A stretch of DNA of 64,000 bases from Owenia fusiformis (lineage: Eukaryota; Annelida; Polychaeta; Sabellida; Oweniidae): NCBI GenBank assembly GCA_903813345.2, contig CAIIXF020000008.1:9761278-9825277 (forward strand). The letters are read 5' to 3'. Within the stretch, counting starts at the first letter, position 1; each line of letters begins with the position of its first letter. Position numbers and translations under genes: made by a program. Positions 35,669 to 61,639 of the stretch are shown piece by piece. Under the pieces are notes generated by a model. The model saw nothing but the letters and a program-made list of their open reading frames with translations, did no database searches and was not told the DNA's origin.

Positions 35669-37502
35669 ACCATCAAACTACCAACCATACATGGCGAGAA
35701 AAAGTGAATGAATCATAAGCCTGCCAGATAAATTAAAATGTTTGGCAAGTAAATCAGAGAAGAAACCACCAGTAAAACAAGCAAAAAGATTCATGAGATT
35801 AAAAATGGATGTTATTAAACTGGCAGTTTCTGAATTAATACTTGAGCATTTGTTGCCCATTGTAGTATTAGCAAATGTGGAATCATTCAGTTCACAGTTT
35901 TTGTCTTTGATTTTCGCAATAGGTACAGATTCATTGTACTGCAAATAGATATTCCAATACCTGAAAATTGTATGAATAGGACAGCAATTGCAAATATCCT
36001 AAATCCAACATGCCCTCGAAATCCTTGGTTATTATGTTTAGTGAATTTCTTGGAAGTATTATTTTCTCTTAGCTGCACTGGAACTATTGAATCATCACCT
36101 GCAAGTACAAATACATCATATAGGCTATAGAGGTATTGAAGATATATGATGCAAAAATGTGTAAATAATTAAAATGATTAACTCCTATTAACGCCTACGC
36201 TTTATTTCTGATTATGCATCAGCTTGAAAAGTAATTGATCTATTGTTTTTTTCTTGTGTTTTTTCAACAAAGTTCGGAGTTATATAGGGAACACCTCCGT
36301 CAGTCCATTCGGGCGATAACTCAAATACCGTTGGGCTGATTATTTTCATATTTTGTACACATATGCCCTATGGGGTAGTTGTTGTGTTCCAAAGTCAATT
36401 TTCAAAATGGCCATTTTCAAAATGACGATTTTGCTGTGAATGAAAAAGAAGTGGAAGGATTTTGTAAAAATGGCAGCCATGGCTGTTTTATGTGATTTGC
36501 TACATTTTTGCGTTACTGTTATCTAGTGAACATTGTTCTCACTTGTGGAATTATATGCTGCATTAATTGTTCCATTGACAGTTTCAAGTCTGTCTGTTTC
36601 TCCTAATGTTTCTTCTATTGTCTTTCTTGAACTCCATCTACCTTGTGGGCAGTCATCTGTGAATAGCCAAAACAGTTATAAGACATATTATTGCGGGAAT
36701 AGTCAAAGTTATCTTCCAAGCATTTGATTTCCCCACTCCAGTCAGTAGCACCAGTCTTAGCAACAGAGGCATTACGAGAAAAGCGACTCCTCCTCCCACA
36801 TTTCCCCAGCCAATTGCTAATGAATCTGCAGTACCAACAATATCAGAACTGAACAAACTGACTGTCCAAGAATTACATGGAACAATTGTCGCACCAAGAA
36901 TGCCAATAAAGAATCTAGTGATTATAAGTCCATTGGCAGTAGATATGAGGCCTGTTATTCCCAGCGAAATTCCCCCAGCCATGAGGAGTATAGCCATGAT
37001 ACGTCTTGGACCAAATCGATCAGTCAATGGACCTGCTGCAAGCCGCACCCCTATCACAGAGGCTACTGCAGCTATTCCTGAAAATAAACATACACATACG
37101 TCAAAATTGTCTCAATAATTCCTGATTATTACAAGTTGTGATATATCATTATGTCCACCAAGATAACTGGTAACATGATAGTTTTGGCTCCCAAGATTTC
37201 TCTTTGTTTCTAAATGGAAATAGTCCAACACATTACTTACCAGAATTTACAACATCTTCATCTGTCAAATTCAGATCTTCTTGGATATCTGGAACTAATG
37301 ACTGGACACAGAACCAACCTTAAAACGCAATGAAAGTGCCAAACCAGGATGCCTGGAAACCTCTCATGTGAGGTCGCTTACAACTAAATAACCAAAATTG
37401 TGTTGCTTTCTCATAATCATCTATCCTAAGATTCTTTTTGTTTTGACACTTTGCCCAGCAACCATTTTCATCTCTTGAATTTTCTTGAGCTTGTGAATCC
37501 AT
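35669..37502 (-). pseudogene. NNP-family nitrate transporter pseudogene
   Basis: This is a broken copy of the intact gene at 43998-46319, with the same exon layout: exon 1 37241-37502, exon 2 36543-37077, exon 3 36098 to about 35669. Four lesions are visible. Exon 1 has TAA where the intact copy has TTT (37320-37322, within GTFIAF*GWF). Exon 2 has a short deletion shifting frame near 36660. Exon 3 loses one base at about 35895 (LLRK, then out of frame). Homology also ends at about 35669, removing roughly the last 200 residues. The second intron carries an extra dispersed repeat (36270-36520) missing from the intact copy. The duplication includes some 5' flank (to about 37.69 kb). The copy lacks the first 14 or so residues of its sister. 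Confidence 0.88.
36270..36520. repeat. Dispersed repeat fragment inside the pseudogene intron
   Basis: Contains aaagttcggagttatatagg, cgtcagtccattcgg and gataactcaaataccg, matching the family at 17800-18475. It is absent from the matching intron at 44843-45291. Confidence 0.6.
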
Positions 37503-37750
37503 TCTTATATTTGTGTATAATCACAGCCCACCAAAGAGTGCCCACATACATGTAGGTATTAGAAGGAGGCCTGGACAGTGTGCTAAACTTTTCTTTCAAT
37601 TTGTATGTCCCAGGTTTAATACAGGACAGGGTAACACCAAAAAGTGGACCTGGAGTTCAAATAACCTTTTGATAATCCATAATTGAGACTCATAATTTGG
37701 CATTATTGTAGTTTACAAAACTTTCATGTAAATTTGACCATTACTACATG

Positions 37751-43997: not shown

Positions 43998-46319
43998 TCA
44001 AAGTTTTGTAAAATCATGCACATGTTTGTCACATCTCGTTTCATGAATATTATCCTTGAGTTCTTTTACAATATTCTCCTCACGGAACATTCCCTTGTTG
44101 AGACATGGATCCAACATGTTATATCCCCCAACGAACACTAATATTGTTAGCAGGGATGAACATAATGCAACTGAGCCCACAATTGTGTAGTACCTTGACA
44201 TGTTATCAAGACTATAACGCCAGAGAAGATTCCAACAGATGCTGCCAGATGTCGCTCCCATCGCTATAATACCACTGACCAATCCCACTCGCTTTGGCCA
44301 GATAAATGGTTCCAGTCCAAAGTTTGTACCTTGAGTATTCTGATAGCAAAAACTCCAGAGAATAAGAACAGCAATTGCAATGGGGAGATTCTCCATATGG
44401 CCAAATAAGATCATCAAACTACCATGCATGGCGAGAAAAAGTAAATGAATCATTAGCCTGCCAGATAAACTAAAACGTTTGGCTAGTAAATCAGAAAAGA
44501 AGCCACCAGTAAAACAAGCAAAAAGATTCATGAGATTAAAAATGGATGTTATTAAACTGGCAGTTTCTGAATTAATAATTGAGCATTTGTTGCCCACTCT
44601 GGACCTGGTAGTATTAGCAAATGTGGAATCATTCAGATCACAGTCATTGTCTTTGAATTTTCTCAATAGATACACATTCATTGTACTGTTAACAGATATT
44701 CCAACACCCGAAAATTGTATGAATAGAACAGCGATTGCAAAAATTCTAAATGCAATGTGCCCTCGAAATCCTGTGATATTCTGCTGAGTGAACTTTTTGG
44801 AAGTATTATCTTTTAACTTTACTGGAACTGTTGAACAGTCACCTGCAAGTGCAAATATATCATGTAGGCTATAGAGTTATTTTAAGATATACAATGCAGA
44901 AATGCATAAATAACTACTGTAGTTTGATAAAATTGAACAAGTTCAATTCAAGACTCCAGATGTTAATTTAAAAAATGATTTTGACATCTGATATTGATGA
45001 CAAAATGAGAAAGAAAATGTATATGTTCTATCCCTCATAGATTTAAAAGCAAAATTTGAACAGTAGTTTGTTAATTGCGAAAATTACAATTATGACCTAG
45101 ATTTTGACCTTGACCTTTGACACTCAAAATTTTGAGTTCACTGACTTTCAAAAATCCCTTTACCTTGTTTTAACTTATTTTGAAGTCAAAATAGTAACAT
45201 GCTATTTATTTTTGATCGATATATGTTCTTGTGTTTTATTTATTGCTGCTTGTGTTTCTTTCAATACTCTATCATTAAACATTGTACTCACTTTTGGAAT
45301 TATATGCTGGATTAACTGTCCCATTGGCAGTTTCAAGTCTATCTGTTTCTCCTATTGTCTTTCTTGATCTCCATCTACCTTGTGGACAGTCATCCGTGAA
45401 TAACCATAAAAGGACTGCACTAATTAGGCATATTATTGCTGGGATAATCAAAGTTATCTTCCAAGCATTTGATTTCCTCACTCCAATCAGTAGCACCAGT
45501 CTTAACAGCAGAGGCATTACGAGAAAGGCAACTCCTCCTCCCACATTTCCCCAGCCAGCTGCTAATGAATTTGCAGAACCAACAATATTGGAACTGAATA
45601 AACTGACTGCCCAAGAATGACATGGAACAATTGTAGCACCAAGAATGCCAATAAAGAATCTAGCAATCATAAGTCCAGTGGCGGTAGATGTAAGGCCTGT
45701 AATTCCAAGTGAAATTCCCCCAGCCATTAGGAGTATAGCCATGATACGTTTTGGCCCAAATCGATCAGTCAATGGACCTGTTGCAAGTCGCACCCCTATC
45801 ACAGAGGCTACTGCAGTTATTCCTGAAAAAAACATATGTATACATGTACTTCAAAATTGCCTCAGTAATTCGTGCTCATTACAAGTTGTGATATCATTAG
45901 GTCTAAGATAAGTACTGGTAACATGATAGTTTTGGATCACAATGTTTCTGTTATATTGATATTCCTCAGGCTTCTATTTCTAAACGAAAATACTCCCAAC
46001 ACAATCATTTACCAGAATTTGCAACTTCTTCATCTGTCAAATTCAGATCTTCTTGGATATCTGGAACTAATGACTGGACACAGAACCAACCAAAAAAGGC
46101 AATGAAAGTGCCAAACCAGGATGCTTGGAAACCTCTCATGTGAGGTCGCTTACAGCTAAATAACCAAAATTGTGTTGCTTTTTCATAATCATCTATGCTA
46201 AGATTCTCTCTGTTTTGACACTTCGCCCAGCAACCATTTTCATCTTTGGAATTTTCTTGAGCTCCTCGTTGACCCATTCTTATATCTGTGCTAGGTGTCC
46301 ATTTTGATTCTTTATCCAT
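43998..46319 (-). CDS. Nitrate/nitrite porter (NNP, NRT2-like) MFS transporter
   Basis: A 560-residue 12-helix-type major facilitator of the nitrate/nitrite porter family, expected in a membrane. Three exons on the minus strand join in frame: 46013-46319, 45292-45822 and 43998-44842 (stop 43998-44000). The start at 46319 has A at -3 and G at +4. The N-terminal exon reads RPHMRGFQASWFGTFIAFFG and LVPDIQEDLNLTDEEVANSG, the NRT2 arrangement. Exon 2 has the TM2 arginine motif VRLATGPLTDRFGPKR and the nitrate signature AAGWGNVGGGVAF. Exon 3 has ACFTGGFFSDLLAKRFSLSG and GTNFGLEPFIWPKRVGLVSG, but the second nitrate signature (usually GxGGN) reads AMGATSGS. Two AATAAA signals lie downstream (43932-43937, 43942-43947, complement). 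The family is clear; the substrate is not proven. Confidence 0.87.
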
Positions 46320-54093: not shown

Positions 54094-54543
54094 CTAAATT
54101 TCTCTTTTGTAAGATAATGGTGGTCCTGAGAAGGACCTTGTGGTTGTTGTTTGAAGTTGTCGCCGCTTATGCTTTGCTGGCCTTGCTCTTCTTGGGGAGA
54201 AGTACAGCCTGGATGTTGGGGAGGACACCTCCTGGGCGATGGTGACACCTCCGAGAAGTTTGTTCAATTCCTCGTCGTTGCGGACAGCCAACTGAAGATG
54301 ACGGGGGATGATTCTGCTTTTCTTGTTGTCACGGGCAGCGTTACCGGCCAACTCCAAGATCTCAGCAGCTAAGTACTCGAGAACGGCAGCCAAGTAGACT
54401 GGGGCACCAGCTCCCACACGCTTGGCGTAGTTTCCTTTGCGAAGAAGACGATGGATTCTTCCAACTGGGAACTGAAGTCCAGCCCTGGTGGATCGGCTCT
54501 TTGCCTTTCCCTTTGCTTTTCCTCCTTTACCGCGTCCAGACAT
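54094..54543 (-). CDS. H2A: Histone H2A, unit 1 (frameshifted as assembled)
   Basis: Core histone, intronless, read from 54543. Residues up to LLGGVTIAQ are identical to the copy at 60525-60902. A single missing T (ctcctggg here, ctccttggg in unit 2, near 54230) then shifts the frame, and the open frame runs past the normal stop (54167-54169) into the 3' stem-loop. The rest of the gene, the stop and the stem-loop are intact in the shifted frame. Because similar one-base losses occur all along this unit, a sequence error is more likely than a real mutation. It is divergently paired with H2B. Confidence 0.85.
54122..54137 (-). terminator. Histone 3' stem-loop of H2A, unit 1
   Basis: On the minus strand it reads GGTCC-TTCTCA-GGACC followed by ACCA, the stem-loop that binds SLBP. 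A purine-rich CAAAAGAGA downstream element (complement of about 54101-54110) follows, the likely U7 site. There is no poly(A) signal. Confidence 0.93.
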
Positions 54544-54839
54544 GATCGATTGTGTGATTGCTTCGAAAGTTCAAAGTAAAATGATCGAAAAAATCCAAAT
54601 TCCCTTTTATACTCCTAGAGTGGATTCAGACTGCAGAAAAACTGGCCACTCGCGAAGCTGGTATCTCGCTATTGGTTGAATTTTAGAGCGCTTAAAAATC
54701 GGCCAATCAGCGACGACTAGTATCGTTGAAAGTCGAGTTTTTCTGCAGCCAGAATCCACTAATTTGCATACGGTTTTCATATAAATACATTTCGCTCCGA
54801 CCTGGCCATTTATTACTCGAGAAATCTCAGTACTTCAAA
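54544..54839. promoter_or_regulatory. Divergent H2A-H2B promoter, unit 1
   Basis: It is nearly symmetrical. TATA for H2A is at 54605-54611 (complement) and for H2B at 54780-54787. CCAAT boxes point each way (54671-54675 complement, 54703-54707). The shared element GTGGATTCAGACTGCAG lies at 54620-54636 and, inverted, at 54743-54759. A perfect ATTTGCAT octamer sits at 54762-54769, the well-known H2B promoter site. Confidence 0.88.
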
Positions 54840-55277
54840 ATGGCACCCAAAGCAGCAAGCAAAGGAAGCAAGAAGGCGGTCAAGTCTAAAAGACCAGCCG
54901 GAGGAGACAAGAAACGCCGAAGGAAGAGGAGAGAATCCTACAGCATCTACGTGTACAAAGTCATGAAGCAAGTGCACCCCGACACTGGAATTTCCAGCAA
55001 GGCCATGAGCATCATGAACAGCTTCGTCAACGACATCTTCGAGCGTATCGCCGGGGAAGCATCTCGTCTCGCCCACTACAACAAGCGATCCACCATCACC
55101 AGCAGAGAGGTACAGACCGCCGTACGTCTCCTTTTGCCCGGTGAGTGGCTAAGCACGCCGTCAGCGAGGGCACCAAAGCCGTCACCAAGTACACCAGCTC
55201 CAAATAAACTGTCTCAGTTTATACCTAAAACACAAGGTCCTCTCAGGACCACCTTTTACTTACAAAAGAGATATTAG
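54840..55277 (+). CDS. H2B: Histone H2B, unit 1 (frameshifted as assembled)
   Basis: Intronless core histone starting [14 protein letters not shown], identical to unit 2 (61201-61569) up to LLLPGE. One T is missing near 55146 (gagtggc here, gagttggc in unit 2), so the last 23 residues are read out of frame and the open frame extends to 55277 instead of stopping at 55205-55207. The in-frame ATG at 54726 gives a longer open frame but lies in the promoter, upstream of the TATA box. The frameshift is probably a sequence error. Confidence 0.85.
55236..55250 (+). terminator. Histone 3' stem-loop of H2B, unit 1
   Basis: GGTCC-TCTCA-GGACC with ACC after it. The loop is one T shorter than in every other copy here, again at a doubled base. 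Downstream CAAAAGAGA at about 55262. Confidence 0.9.
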
Positions 55278-60524: not shown

Positions 60525-60902
60525 TTATGCTTTGCTGGCCTTGCTCTTCTTGGGGAGAAGTACAGCCTGGATGTTGGGGAGGACACCTCCTTGGGCGATG
60601 GTGACACCTCCGAGAAGTTTGTTCAATTCCTCGTCGTTGCGGACAGCCAACTGAAGATGACGGGGGATGATTCTGCTTTTCTTGTTGTCACGGGCAGCGT
60701 TACCGGCCAACTCCAAGATCTCAGCAGCTAAGTACTCGAGAACGGCAGCCAAGTAGACTGGGGCACCAGCTCCCACACGCTTGGCGTAGTTTCCTTTGCG
60801 AAGAAGACGATGGATTCTTCCAACTGGGAACTGAAGTCCAGCCCTGGTGGATCGGCTCTTTGCCTTTCCCTTTGCTTTTCCTCCTTTACCGCGTCCAGAC
60901 AT
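60525..60902 (-). CDS. H2A: Histone H2A, unit 2
   Basis: Intact core H2A of 125 residues, [20 protein letters not shown] to [11 protein letters not shown]. The acidic-patch stretch ([20 protein letters not shown] and NDEELNKLL) is complete. The tail has no SQ(E/D) motif near its end, so it is canonical and not H2A.X, and it is not H2A.Z. It reads from 60902 leftwards and shares a 298-nt divergent promoter with H2B. Confidence 0.97.
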
Positions 60903-61200
60903 GATCGATTGTGTGATTGCTTCGAAAGTTCAAAGTAAAATGATCGAAAAAATCCAAATTCCCTTTTATACTCCTAGAGTGGATTCAGACTGCAGAAAAA
61001 CTGGCCACTTCGCGAAGCTGGTATCTCGCTATTGGTTGAATTTTAGAGCGCTTAAAAATCGGCCAATCAGCGACGACTAGTATCGTTGAAAGTCGAGTTT
61101 TTTCTGCAGCCAGAATCCACTAATTTGCATACGGTTTTCATATAAATACATTTCGCTCCGACCTGGCCATTTATTACTCGAGAAATCTCAGTACTTCAAA
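60903..61200. promoter_or_regulatory. Divergent H2A-H2B promoter, unit 2
   Basis: Same layout as unit 1: shared element at 60979-60995 and, inverted, 61104-61120; octamer ATTTGCAT at 61123-61130; TATA boxes for each gene; two opposed CCAAT boxes. Confidence 0.88.
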
Positions 61201-61569
61201 ATGGCACCCAAAGCAGCAAGCAAAGGAAGCAAGAAGGCGGTCAAGTCTAAAAGACCAGCCGGAGGAGACAAGAAACGCCGAAGGAAGAGGAGAGAATCCT
61301 ACAGCATCTACGTGTACAAAGTCATGAAGCAAGTGCACCCCGACACTGGAATTTCCAGCAAGGCCATGAGCATCATGAACAGCTTCGTCAACGACATCTT
61401 CGAGCGTATCGCCGGGGAAGCATCTCGTCTCGCCCACTACAACAAGCGATCCACCATCACCAGCAGAGAGGTACAGACCGCCGTACGTCTCCTTTTGCCC
61501 GGTGAGTTGGCTAAGCACGCCGTCAGCGAGGGCACCAAAGCCGTCACCAAGTACACCAGCTCCAAATAA
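61201..61569 (+). CDS. H2B: Histone H2B, unit 2
   Basis: Intact core H2B of 122 residues, [20 protein letters not shown] to [12 protein letters not shown], with a basic tail ([20 protein letters not shown]). The C-terminal AVTKYTSSK contains the lysine usually ubiquitinated in animals. [10 protein letters not shown] carries G where many molluscs have A. The start is fixed by the TATA box and by the paired copy. Confidence 0.97.
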
Positions 61570-61597
61570 ACTGTCTCAGTTTATACCTAAAACACAA

Positions 61598-61613
61598 GGT
61601 CCTTCTCAGGACC
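61598..61613 (+). terminator. Histone 3' stem-loop of H2B, unit 2
   Basis: GGTCC-TTCTCA-GGACC with the normal six-base loop, unlike the five-base loop of unit 1. Confidence 0.95.
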
Positions 61614-61639
61614 ACCTTTTACTTACAAAGAGATATTAG

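What the first reader, a model, noticed from the sequence alone, without database searches (positions are those of the whole stretch)
43998..46319. An NRT2/NarK-type nitrate porter in an animal genome
Seen: a three-exon, 560-aa gene with the NNP order of motifs, including AAGWGNVGGG and VRLATGPLTDRFGP, split by spliceosomal introns and next to animal genes, so it is not a bacterial contaminant. Known: NNP porters are described mainly in bacteria, fungi, algae and plants; animals are usually said to handle nitrate with unrelated carriers. Inferred: this lineage may take up or export nitrate/nitrite, or a related anion, by a little-studied route, by old retention or by gene transfer.
Basis: partly seen in the sequence, partly recalled or inferred. 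Interest (0 to 1): 0.75.

Follow-up and report, generated by a model that had tools for sequence, protein, structure and literature searches.

The report
Animal nitrate-porter relative with lost pocket
This animal genome carries a small family of nitrate-porter genes of the kind known from plants and fungi, and the one pointed out is an odd member whose nitrate-gripping residues have been swapped or deleted, so it probably carries something else.

Summary
The gene is real: minus strand, three GT-AG exons (46319-46013, 45822-45292, 44842-43998), 560 aa. It is an animal gene, one of seven family loci found in the genome: six open, one broken copy beside it. The six open models share both intron positions and phase 1. 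By descent they are NRT2/NNP: NarK is the best curated model for 6 of 6, though under its cut-off in 6 of 6, and they group with fungal and plant NRT2 (those two sequences recalled). But 'nitrate porter' does not fit this gene. Four paralogues keep all eight NarK site residues; the window gene keeps four: Phe147 is Ile, Tyr263 is Phe, Phe267 is deleted, Arg305 is Cys. NarK Y263F and R305K each abolish activity; the two Phe are not critical (PMC4432589, passages). The window gene and its sister have been under purifying selection as a pair (omega 0.23), less clearly so on the window branch alone. No nitrite reductase was found. Reading: an animal NRT2 family with a re-tooled, probably non-nitrate branch; substrate unknown.

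The parts
46013..46319 (-). exon 1 (residues 1-102 and first base of codon 103), RPHMRxF motif and TM1, Phe75 = NarK F49
45823..46012 (-). intron 1, GT-AG, phase 1
45292..45822 (-). exon 2 with GVRLATGPLTDRFGP and NS1 AAGWGNVGGG
44843..45291 (-). intron 2, GT-AG, phase 1
43998..44842 (-). exon 3 with stop codon; C-terminal half, ends TKL
45788..45790 (-). Arg114 codon, equals NarK R89 (TM2), kept
45629..45631 (-). Ile167 codon at the NarK F147 position, substituted
45545..45547 (-). Asn195 codon, equals NarK N175 (NS1), kept
44712..44714 (-). Phe323 codon at the NarK Y263 position; a 9-base in-frame gap that removes the F267 position follows one codon downstream
44514..44516 (-). Cys389 codon at the NarK R305 / CrnA R368 position (TM8), substituted
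44250..44252 (-). Thr477 codon where the 13 bacterial and 2 recalled NRT2-type rows have Asn in NS2 (NarK itself has Ala)
37239..37514 (-). broken neighbouring copy, exon 1 piece with an in-frame stop
36538..37081 (-). broken neighbouring copy, exon 2 in two frames
35684..36096 (-). broken neighbouring copy, exon 3 pieces in two frames, ends at the residue 420 equivalent; carries the same TM7 gap and TM8 Cys

Best explanation
The gene is a derived member of a six-gene animal NRT2 (nitrate/nitrite porter) family. Four paralogues keep the complete nitrate site and probably move nitrate or nitrite. In the branch to which the window gene, its sister on the same chromosome and the broken neighbour belong, the C-terminal half of the site was dismantled before those copies split: the TM8 arginine became Cys, the TM7 tyrosine Phe, the TM7 stacking Phe was deleted; in the N-half the TM4 stacking Phe became Ile. 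I think it most likely still works as an alternating-access carrier in the cell membrane, with one arginine (Arg114) left in the site, for a substrate other than nitrate. Shown: gene structure, descent, residue changes, purifying selection on the pair. Inferred: membrane location, that transport persists, and that the substrate changed.
For: Family: TIGR00886 is the best NCBIfam model for 6 of 6 genes (C2 274.5, C9 271, C5 268.5, C12 263.8, window 209.2, C8b 187.4 bits; next model at most 73.9). Descent: six models with both introns at the same places and phase 1; tree with recalled CrnA (98/97) and NRT2.1 (94/99). Residues: 8 of 8 NarK site positions kept in each of C2, C5, C9, C12 and in 13 of 13 bacterial rows; 4 of 8 in the window gene, 3 of 8 in C8b; the TM7 gap is in 3 of 3 copies of the branch and the TM8 Cys too, so not a read error. 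Function of the lost residues: NarK Y263F and R305K completely abolished complementation (PMC4432589, passages); the TM2 and TM8 arginines are needed in NrtA and NarK2 (PMC4635503, PMC3445494, passages). Selection: pair omega 0.229, both halves below 1; window branch 0.31-0.38 when the broken copy splits it. Surface look: TM7-8 loop of 32-40 residues with two Cys and at least one N-glycosylation sequon in 6 of 6, against 10-14 residues with no Cys pair and no sequon in 16 of 16 other rows.
Against: No transcript, localisation or transport data. The same NarK paper calls the F147 and F267 stacking important but not critical, and recalled plant NRT2.1 has Met at F267, so only the TM7 Tyr and TM8 Arg carry the argument; in NrtA, Lys for Arg reduced but did not end activity (PMC3445494, passage). 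The Ala at NS2 G408 is in all six animal genes, the complete ones too. The window branch omega is 0.65 and not distinguishable from 1 in the three-sequence test (2dlnL 0.16), 2dlnL is only 3.27 under one of three topologies, and the value is close to that of the broken copy (0.38-0.40), so recent loss of function is possible. The sister C8b has lost a further site residue (Thr195) and its last 11 residues by an earlier stop.
Confidence: 0.55

Rival explanations
1. The window gene is a working nitrate/nitrite porter; the altered site still binds nitrate through Arg114 and other contacts.
For: TM2 Arg, NS1 motif and NS1 Asn are kept; descent from NRT2; two of the four lost residues (F147, F267) are not critical in NarK.
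Against: TM8 Arg and TM7 Tyr lost, whose single replacements abolish NarK activity; the four other paralogues keep all eight, so the loss is specific to this branch.
Confidence: 0.12
2. The window gene is a decaying duplicate: the branch lost its site, one copy is already broken, another is shortened, and this one is on the same path.
For: Broken neighbour; C8b shortened and NS1 altered; window branch omega 0.65 in one analysis and near that of the broken copy in the other.
Against: Whole reading frame and splice sites intact; pair omega 0.229, 2dlnL 80.7 against 1; branch omega 0.31, 2dlnL 12.1, under the best topology.
Confidence: 0.25
3. The protein no longer transports but acts as a sensor or as a partner subunit of the complete paralogues.
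For: Loss of the site with the rest of the protein conserved in the pair; transporter-derived sensors are known in other MFS families (recalled).
Against: No domain added, no direct evidence.
Confidence: 0.08
4. Bacterial contaminant or recent transfer from a bacterium.
For: The relatives reachable by the searches here are bacterial, at 34% (C9) to 38% (C2) identity; no eukaryotic collection could be searched.
Against: Introns, contig size, seven loci on five contigs, animal genes around; own genes group with recalled fungal and plant NRT2, and a clade with SAR202 or with the ten assimilatory bacterial rows is rejected (AU p 0.00034, 0.0238).
Confidence: 0.02

Closest known systems
Eukaryotic NRT2 nitrate transporters (plant NRT2.1, fungal CrnA/NrtA)
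   Same: Motif order, TM2 Arg, NS1, tree position with both (the two sequences were recalled, CrnA checked only at R87 and R368)
   Different: Window gene lacks the TM8 Arg, TM7 Tyr, TM4 Phe and NS2 Asn; the animal family has a long TM7-8 loop with a Cys pair and sequons; no nitrite reductase found in the genome
Escherichia coli NarK (PDB 4jr9, 4u4v)
   Same: F49, R89, N175, G268 equivalents kept
   Different: F147, Y263, F267, R305 equivalents not kept in the window gene; pairwise BLAST match not significant (E 0.27); PDB search with the window gene or the six-row profile found nothing at the limits used
Bacterial assimilatory porters (SAR202, Niveispirillum, Spirosoma, Hymenobacter and others)
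   Same: 26-31% identity to the window gene where the match spans over 400 residues; five of the loci sit beside nirB, nirD, nitrate reductase or a nitrite/sulphite reductase ORF
   Different: They keep the whole site (13 of 13 rows) and lack the long loop; genes uninterrupted
Sialin (SLC17A5), a carrier named for animal nitrate
   Same: Anion carrier of the MFS (recalled)
   Different: Another MFS family (recalled); seen here only as an acoel H+/nitrate transporter in one passage of PMC11091193. Not compared.

Membership tests
NNP (nitrate/nitrite porter) family, window gene | Major facilitator domain | tested here: met
   PF07690 E 5.1e-32, 111.6 bits over a cut-off of 33.4
NNP (nitrate/nitrite porter) family, window gene | Curated NarK-family model TIGR00886 | tested here: inconclusive
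   Best model, 209.2 bits, cut-off 311.7; the five paralogues are also below it, 187.4-274.5 bits
NNP (nitrate/nitrite porter) family, window gene | Arg in TM2 (NarK R89) | tested here: met
   Arg114
NNP (nitrate/nitrite porter) family, window gene | Nitrate signature 1 with Asn (NarK N175) | tested here: met
   AAGWGNVGGG, Asn195; not met in sister C8b (Thr195)
NNP (nitrate/nitrite porter) family, window gene | Arg in TM8 (NarK R305) | tested here: not met
   Cys389
NNP (nitrate/nitrite porter) family, window gene | TM7 Tyr (NarK Y263), called strictly conserved with R305 and G268 in PMC4432589 | tested here: not met
   Phe323; the F267 position is also deleted
NNP (nitrate/nitrite porter) family, window gene | Nitrate signature 2 in TM11 | tested here: not met
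   GIIAMGATSGS: NS2 Asn is Thr (also in C8b, C12), one Gly is Ala (also in C8b); the Ala at G408 is shared by all six animal genes; NarK itself lacks the Asn
NNP family, paralogues C2, C5, C9, C12 | All eight NarK site residues F49, R89, F147, N175, Y263, F267, G268, R305 | tested here: met
   4 of 4 genes, 8 of 8 each; all four have Ala at NS2 G408 and C12 has Thr for the NS2 Asn
Eukaryotic NRT2 clade | Tree position with fungal and plant NRT2 | tested here: met
   Own six with CrnA 98/97, then NRT2.1 94/99; rests on two recalled long-branch rows; unresolved when NarK and outgroups are in
Nitrate assimilation pathway | Nitrite reductase and nitrate reductase in the same genome | tested here: not met
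   No NIR_SIR match; one Oxidored_molyb locus only, which I take to be sulfite oxidase (not tested). A missing match in this genome does not prove absence
NNP family | Transport of nitrate or nitrite | not testable with these tools
   -

The most novel reading that the evidence does not exclude
Animals, or at least this lineage, own an old eukaryotic NRT2 family uncoupled from nitrate assimilation. Complete members move nitrate or nitrite for another purpose, such as nitrite/NO balance or excretion, and one branch was re-tooled into a one-arginine carrier with a new substrate.
Probability: 0.35. Interest if true: 0.78.

Novelty: new variant of a known kind. Interest (0 to 1): 0.62.

Why it matters
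A survey of eukaryotic genomes reports nitrate-assimilation genes, NRT2 included, only in phototrophs and fungus-like osmotrophs (PMC6400420, sections 6 and 20; how many animals it sampled I did not see), a 2026 paper repeats this for the pathway (PMC13345962, passages), and an older one mentions a bacteria-like nrt2 in Nematostella (PMC2040219, one passage). Six NRT2-type genes in an animal, four with the whole nitrate site and no nitrite reductase found, would mean that animals can take up or release nitrate or nitrite by a route outside these accounts. The window gene adds a natural experiment: a close paralogue in which half of the nitrate site has been replaced while the branch stayed under constraint, so the two can be compared directly by expression and by swapping residues.

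Tried and rejected
Bacterial contamination and recent bacterial transfer: rejected on introns, contig context and tree. Another MFS family: rejected; the NarK model leads in 6 of 6 and three MFS genes of the same genome fall far outside. Read or assembly error behind the site changes: rejected, three copies share the TM7 gap and TM8 Cys. PDB search by sequence with the window gene (E up to 0.01) and with the six-row profile (E up to 0.001) gave no match, so comparison with a solved structure rests on the alignment to NarK. Viral contigs: 25 stretches fitted a pattern, none a relative. Genome contigs: 177 stretches fitted, 5 loci are relatives. Chloroflexota: 1 of 201 genomes, the centre itself, has a match at E 1e-40. 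The first tree with NarK and three outgroup rows left the deep order open, so a second was built without these four rows (one search was a failed script of the same tree). Species not identified: no cox1 match in the assembly; size resembles the annelid Owenia fusiformis (498 Mb here; 505.8 Mb and 12 chromosomes in PMC9977687, passages), which is a guess. Hydropathy counts (10-14 peaks) were too crude to use. A C-terminal [ST]-x-[LV] in five of six open genes (TKL three times, SKL, SNV) might be a PDZ ligand; not tested. Paper searches aimed at animal NRT2; the titles and abstract starts listed (15 of 17, 15 of 484, 15 of 866, the full list in the others) show no study of an animal NRT2. Only open-licence papers are held. 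I recall that automatic annotations name such proteins in some marine invertebrates.

Full report
OBSERVATION. On the minus strand the three exons 46319-46013, 45822-45292 and 44842-43998 join at GT-AG sites to a 560-aa open frame that ends at a stop codon. Both introns are in phase 1. The product matches Pfam MFS_1 (E 5.1e-32); its best curated model is the NarK family TIGR00886 (E 9.2e-62, 209.2 bits), far ahead of the next (58.4 bits) but below that model's cut-off of 311.7.

IT IS AN ANIMAL GENE AND ONE OF A FAMILY. The window is C8:9761278-9825277 of a 498-Mb genome. Wnt matches, 42 at about twelve places on six contigs and none in the 14 control genomes (which are prokaryotes), show an animal; none is on C8 itself, but C5 and C9 carry both Wnt and a paralogue. 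On C8 the neighbours are dynein heavy-chain exons on the left (4 of 8 ORFs tested matched dynein domains, one of them below its cut-off) and core histones on the right. Searching the genome with the window protein gave 23 matches and with paralogue C9 22; both sets fall into the same seven loci. Six give complete open models of three exons, with splice sites that I placed by homology and GT/AG: both introns phase 1 at the same two places in the window gene, C8b (C8, 17.97 Mb), C12, C2, C9 and C5. Two of these models (C2, C9) join exons across introns of about 7.3 and 8.0 kb whose middles were not fetched, and no transcript was seen. The seventh locus is the broken copy next to the window gene, on the same strand, with a stop in exon 1, frame changes and no match after residue 420.

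FAMILY. TIGR00886 is the best model for 6 of 6 genes: C2 274.5, C9 271, C5 268.5, C12 263.8, window 209.2, C8b 187.4 bits, all below the cut-off; the next model reaches at most 73.9. The nearest relatives that could be searched are bacterial nitrate-assimilation porters. Of eight plasmid loci fetched, three have annotated neighbours nirB, nirD or nitrate reductase, four have no annotated feature in the stretch and one lies beside another nitrate/nitrite transporter. In the two SAR202-type loci a 512-aa ORF follows; the one tested is a nitrite/sulphite reductase (L011) and that of L010 begins alike. In a tree of 21 rows the six genes form one group (100/99), joined by recalled fungal CrnA (98/97) and then recalled plant NRT2.1 (94/99), apart from 13 bacterial rows. 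Trees that hold the six with SAR202, or with ten bacterial assimilatory rows, are rejected (AU p 0.00034 and 0.0238). The earlier 25-row tree with NarK and three outgroup MFS genes of the same genome kept the six together at only 74/100 and left the deep order open.

THE NITRATE SITE. In NarK nitrate is held by F49, R89, F147, N175, Y263, F267 and R305, with G268 as a hinge in TM7; Y263F and R305K completely abolished complementation, R89K was rescued at the highest induction, and the F147 and F267 stacking is called important but not critical; Y263, R305 and G268 are called strictly conserved in the family (PMC4432589, passages). The TM2 and TM8 arginines are also needed in NrtA and NarK2; Lys for Arg reduced but did not end NrtA activity (PMC4635503, PMC3445494, passages). 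My NarK sequence was identical to PDB entry 4jr9 over 463 residues. Aligned to it, C2, C5, C9 and C12 keep 8 of 8 positions, as do 13 of 13 bacterial rows and recalled CrnA; recalled NRT2.1 keeps 7 (Met at F267). The window gene keeps F75, R114, N195 and G325 and has Ile167, Phe323, a gap and Cys389 at the other four; C8b has the same four changes plus Thr195. The NS2 Asn is Thr in the window gene, C8b and C12 (NarK has Ala there), and the Ala at NS2 G408 is shared by all six animal genes. The 9-base TM7 gap and the TM8 Cys are also in the broken copy, so these changes predate the split of the three and are no read error. Of 25 columns invariant in the 16 non-animal rows the window gene differs at 5 (F147, Y263 and R305 among them), C8b at 5, C12 at 1, C2 at 2, C9 at 1 and C5 at 2; the one difference common to all six is G408.

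IS IT STILL WORKING? Between the window gene and C8b omega is 0.229 over 542 codons (dS 0.315), and 1 is rejected over the whole and in each half, the middle loop left out of the halves (2dlnL 80.7, 55.1, 30.1). Split by branch the picture is weaker. With C12 alone as outgroup the window branch has omega 0.65, not distinguishable from 1 (2dlnL 0.16), C8b 0.15; letting the window branch differ from the rest gains 2dlnL 3.9. With the broken copy added, the window branch is 0.31, 0.32 or 0.38 under the three topologies (2dlnL against 1: 12.1, 11.8, 3.3; the first topology is best by 0.8 lnL), the broken copy 0.38-0.40 and C8b 0.19. So the branch has been constrained for most of its time since losing the site, but the window gene's own constraint is not much tighter than that measured for a copy now broken.

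ANIMAL-TYPE ADDITIONS. All six have a TM7-TM8 loop of 32-40 residues by the same alignment cut that gives 10-14 in the other 16 rows; 6 of 6 carry two Cys and at least one N-glycosylation sequon there, 0 of 16 others a Cys pair or a sequon. In NNP topology (recalled) that loop faces outside, which suggests a surface protein with a disulphide-bridged, glycosylated loop. Five of six end in TKL, SKL or SNV on otherwise unlike tails, a possible PDZ ligand.

CONTEXT. No nitrite/sulphite reductase domain was found in the genome, while the same search rang in 11 of 14 controls; one locus has the Oxidored_molyb domain. A missing match in this genome does not prove absence. If true, the family does not serve nitrate assimilation.

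READING. The complete paralogues are the candidates for nitrate or nitrite transport. The window gene most likely is a carrier whose site has been rebuilt around a single arginine; its substrate cannot be told from sequence. In strict terms the window gene is a descendant of the NNP family that fails tested defining features (TM8 Arg, TM7 Tyr, NS2); the four paralogues meet the eight-residue test.

NOVELTY. The survey of 172 eukaryotic genomes found NRT2 and its partners only in autotrophs and fungus-like osmotrophs (PMC6400420, sections 6, 20 and 28); a 2026 paper repeats it for the pathway (PMC13345962, passages). A 2007 paper mentions a bacteria-like nrt2 in Nematostella (PMC2040219, passage). 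The listings show no study of an animal NRT2, the last two and being cut lists; the library lacks most subscription papers. I recall automatic annotations of this kind in marine invertebrates, so the family itself may be visible in databases though not described in what I could read.

Noticed in passing
window 35684-37514 (-): Broken tandem copy of the same family with a stop and frame changes, sharing the site changes.
   Followed up: yes
window 6789-28747 (+): Exons of a dynein heavy chain: AAA_7 (below cut-off), stalk, AAA_lid_11 and Dynein_C matches in 4 of 8 ORFs tested.
   Followed up: partly
window 54094-55277 and 60525-61569: Two histone units; the C-termini of the H2A and H2B frames of the first differ from those of the second as if the frame had shifted. 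Assembly indels or decayed copies.
   Followed up: no
window 61593-61639 (+): Only one histone 3' stem-loop reaches the Rfam gathering score although at least two histone units are present.
   Followed up: no
L023, L024, L025 (G000 C1 2.91 Mb, C3 4.10 Mb, C12 1.84 Mb): MFS genes of 482-511 aa in one open frame without introns; the two tested also match Pfam NFD4_C (L023) or Nodulin-like (L024), families that I recall from plants and microbes.
   Followed up: partly
L010, L011: SAR202/Dehalococcoidia nitrate-porter relatives followed by a nitrite/sulphite reductase ORF; 1 of 201 Chloroflexota genomes searched has a match at E 1e-40.
   Followed up: partly
C-termini of five of six open genes: [ST]-x-[LV] ending on unlike tails, possible PDZ ligand.
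   Followed up: no
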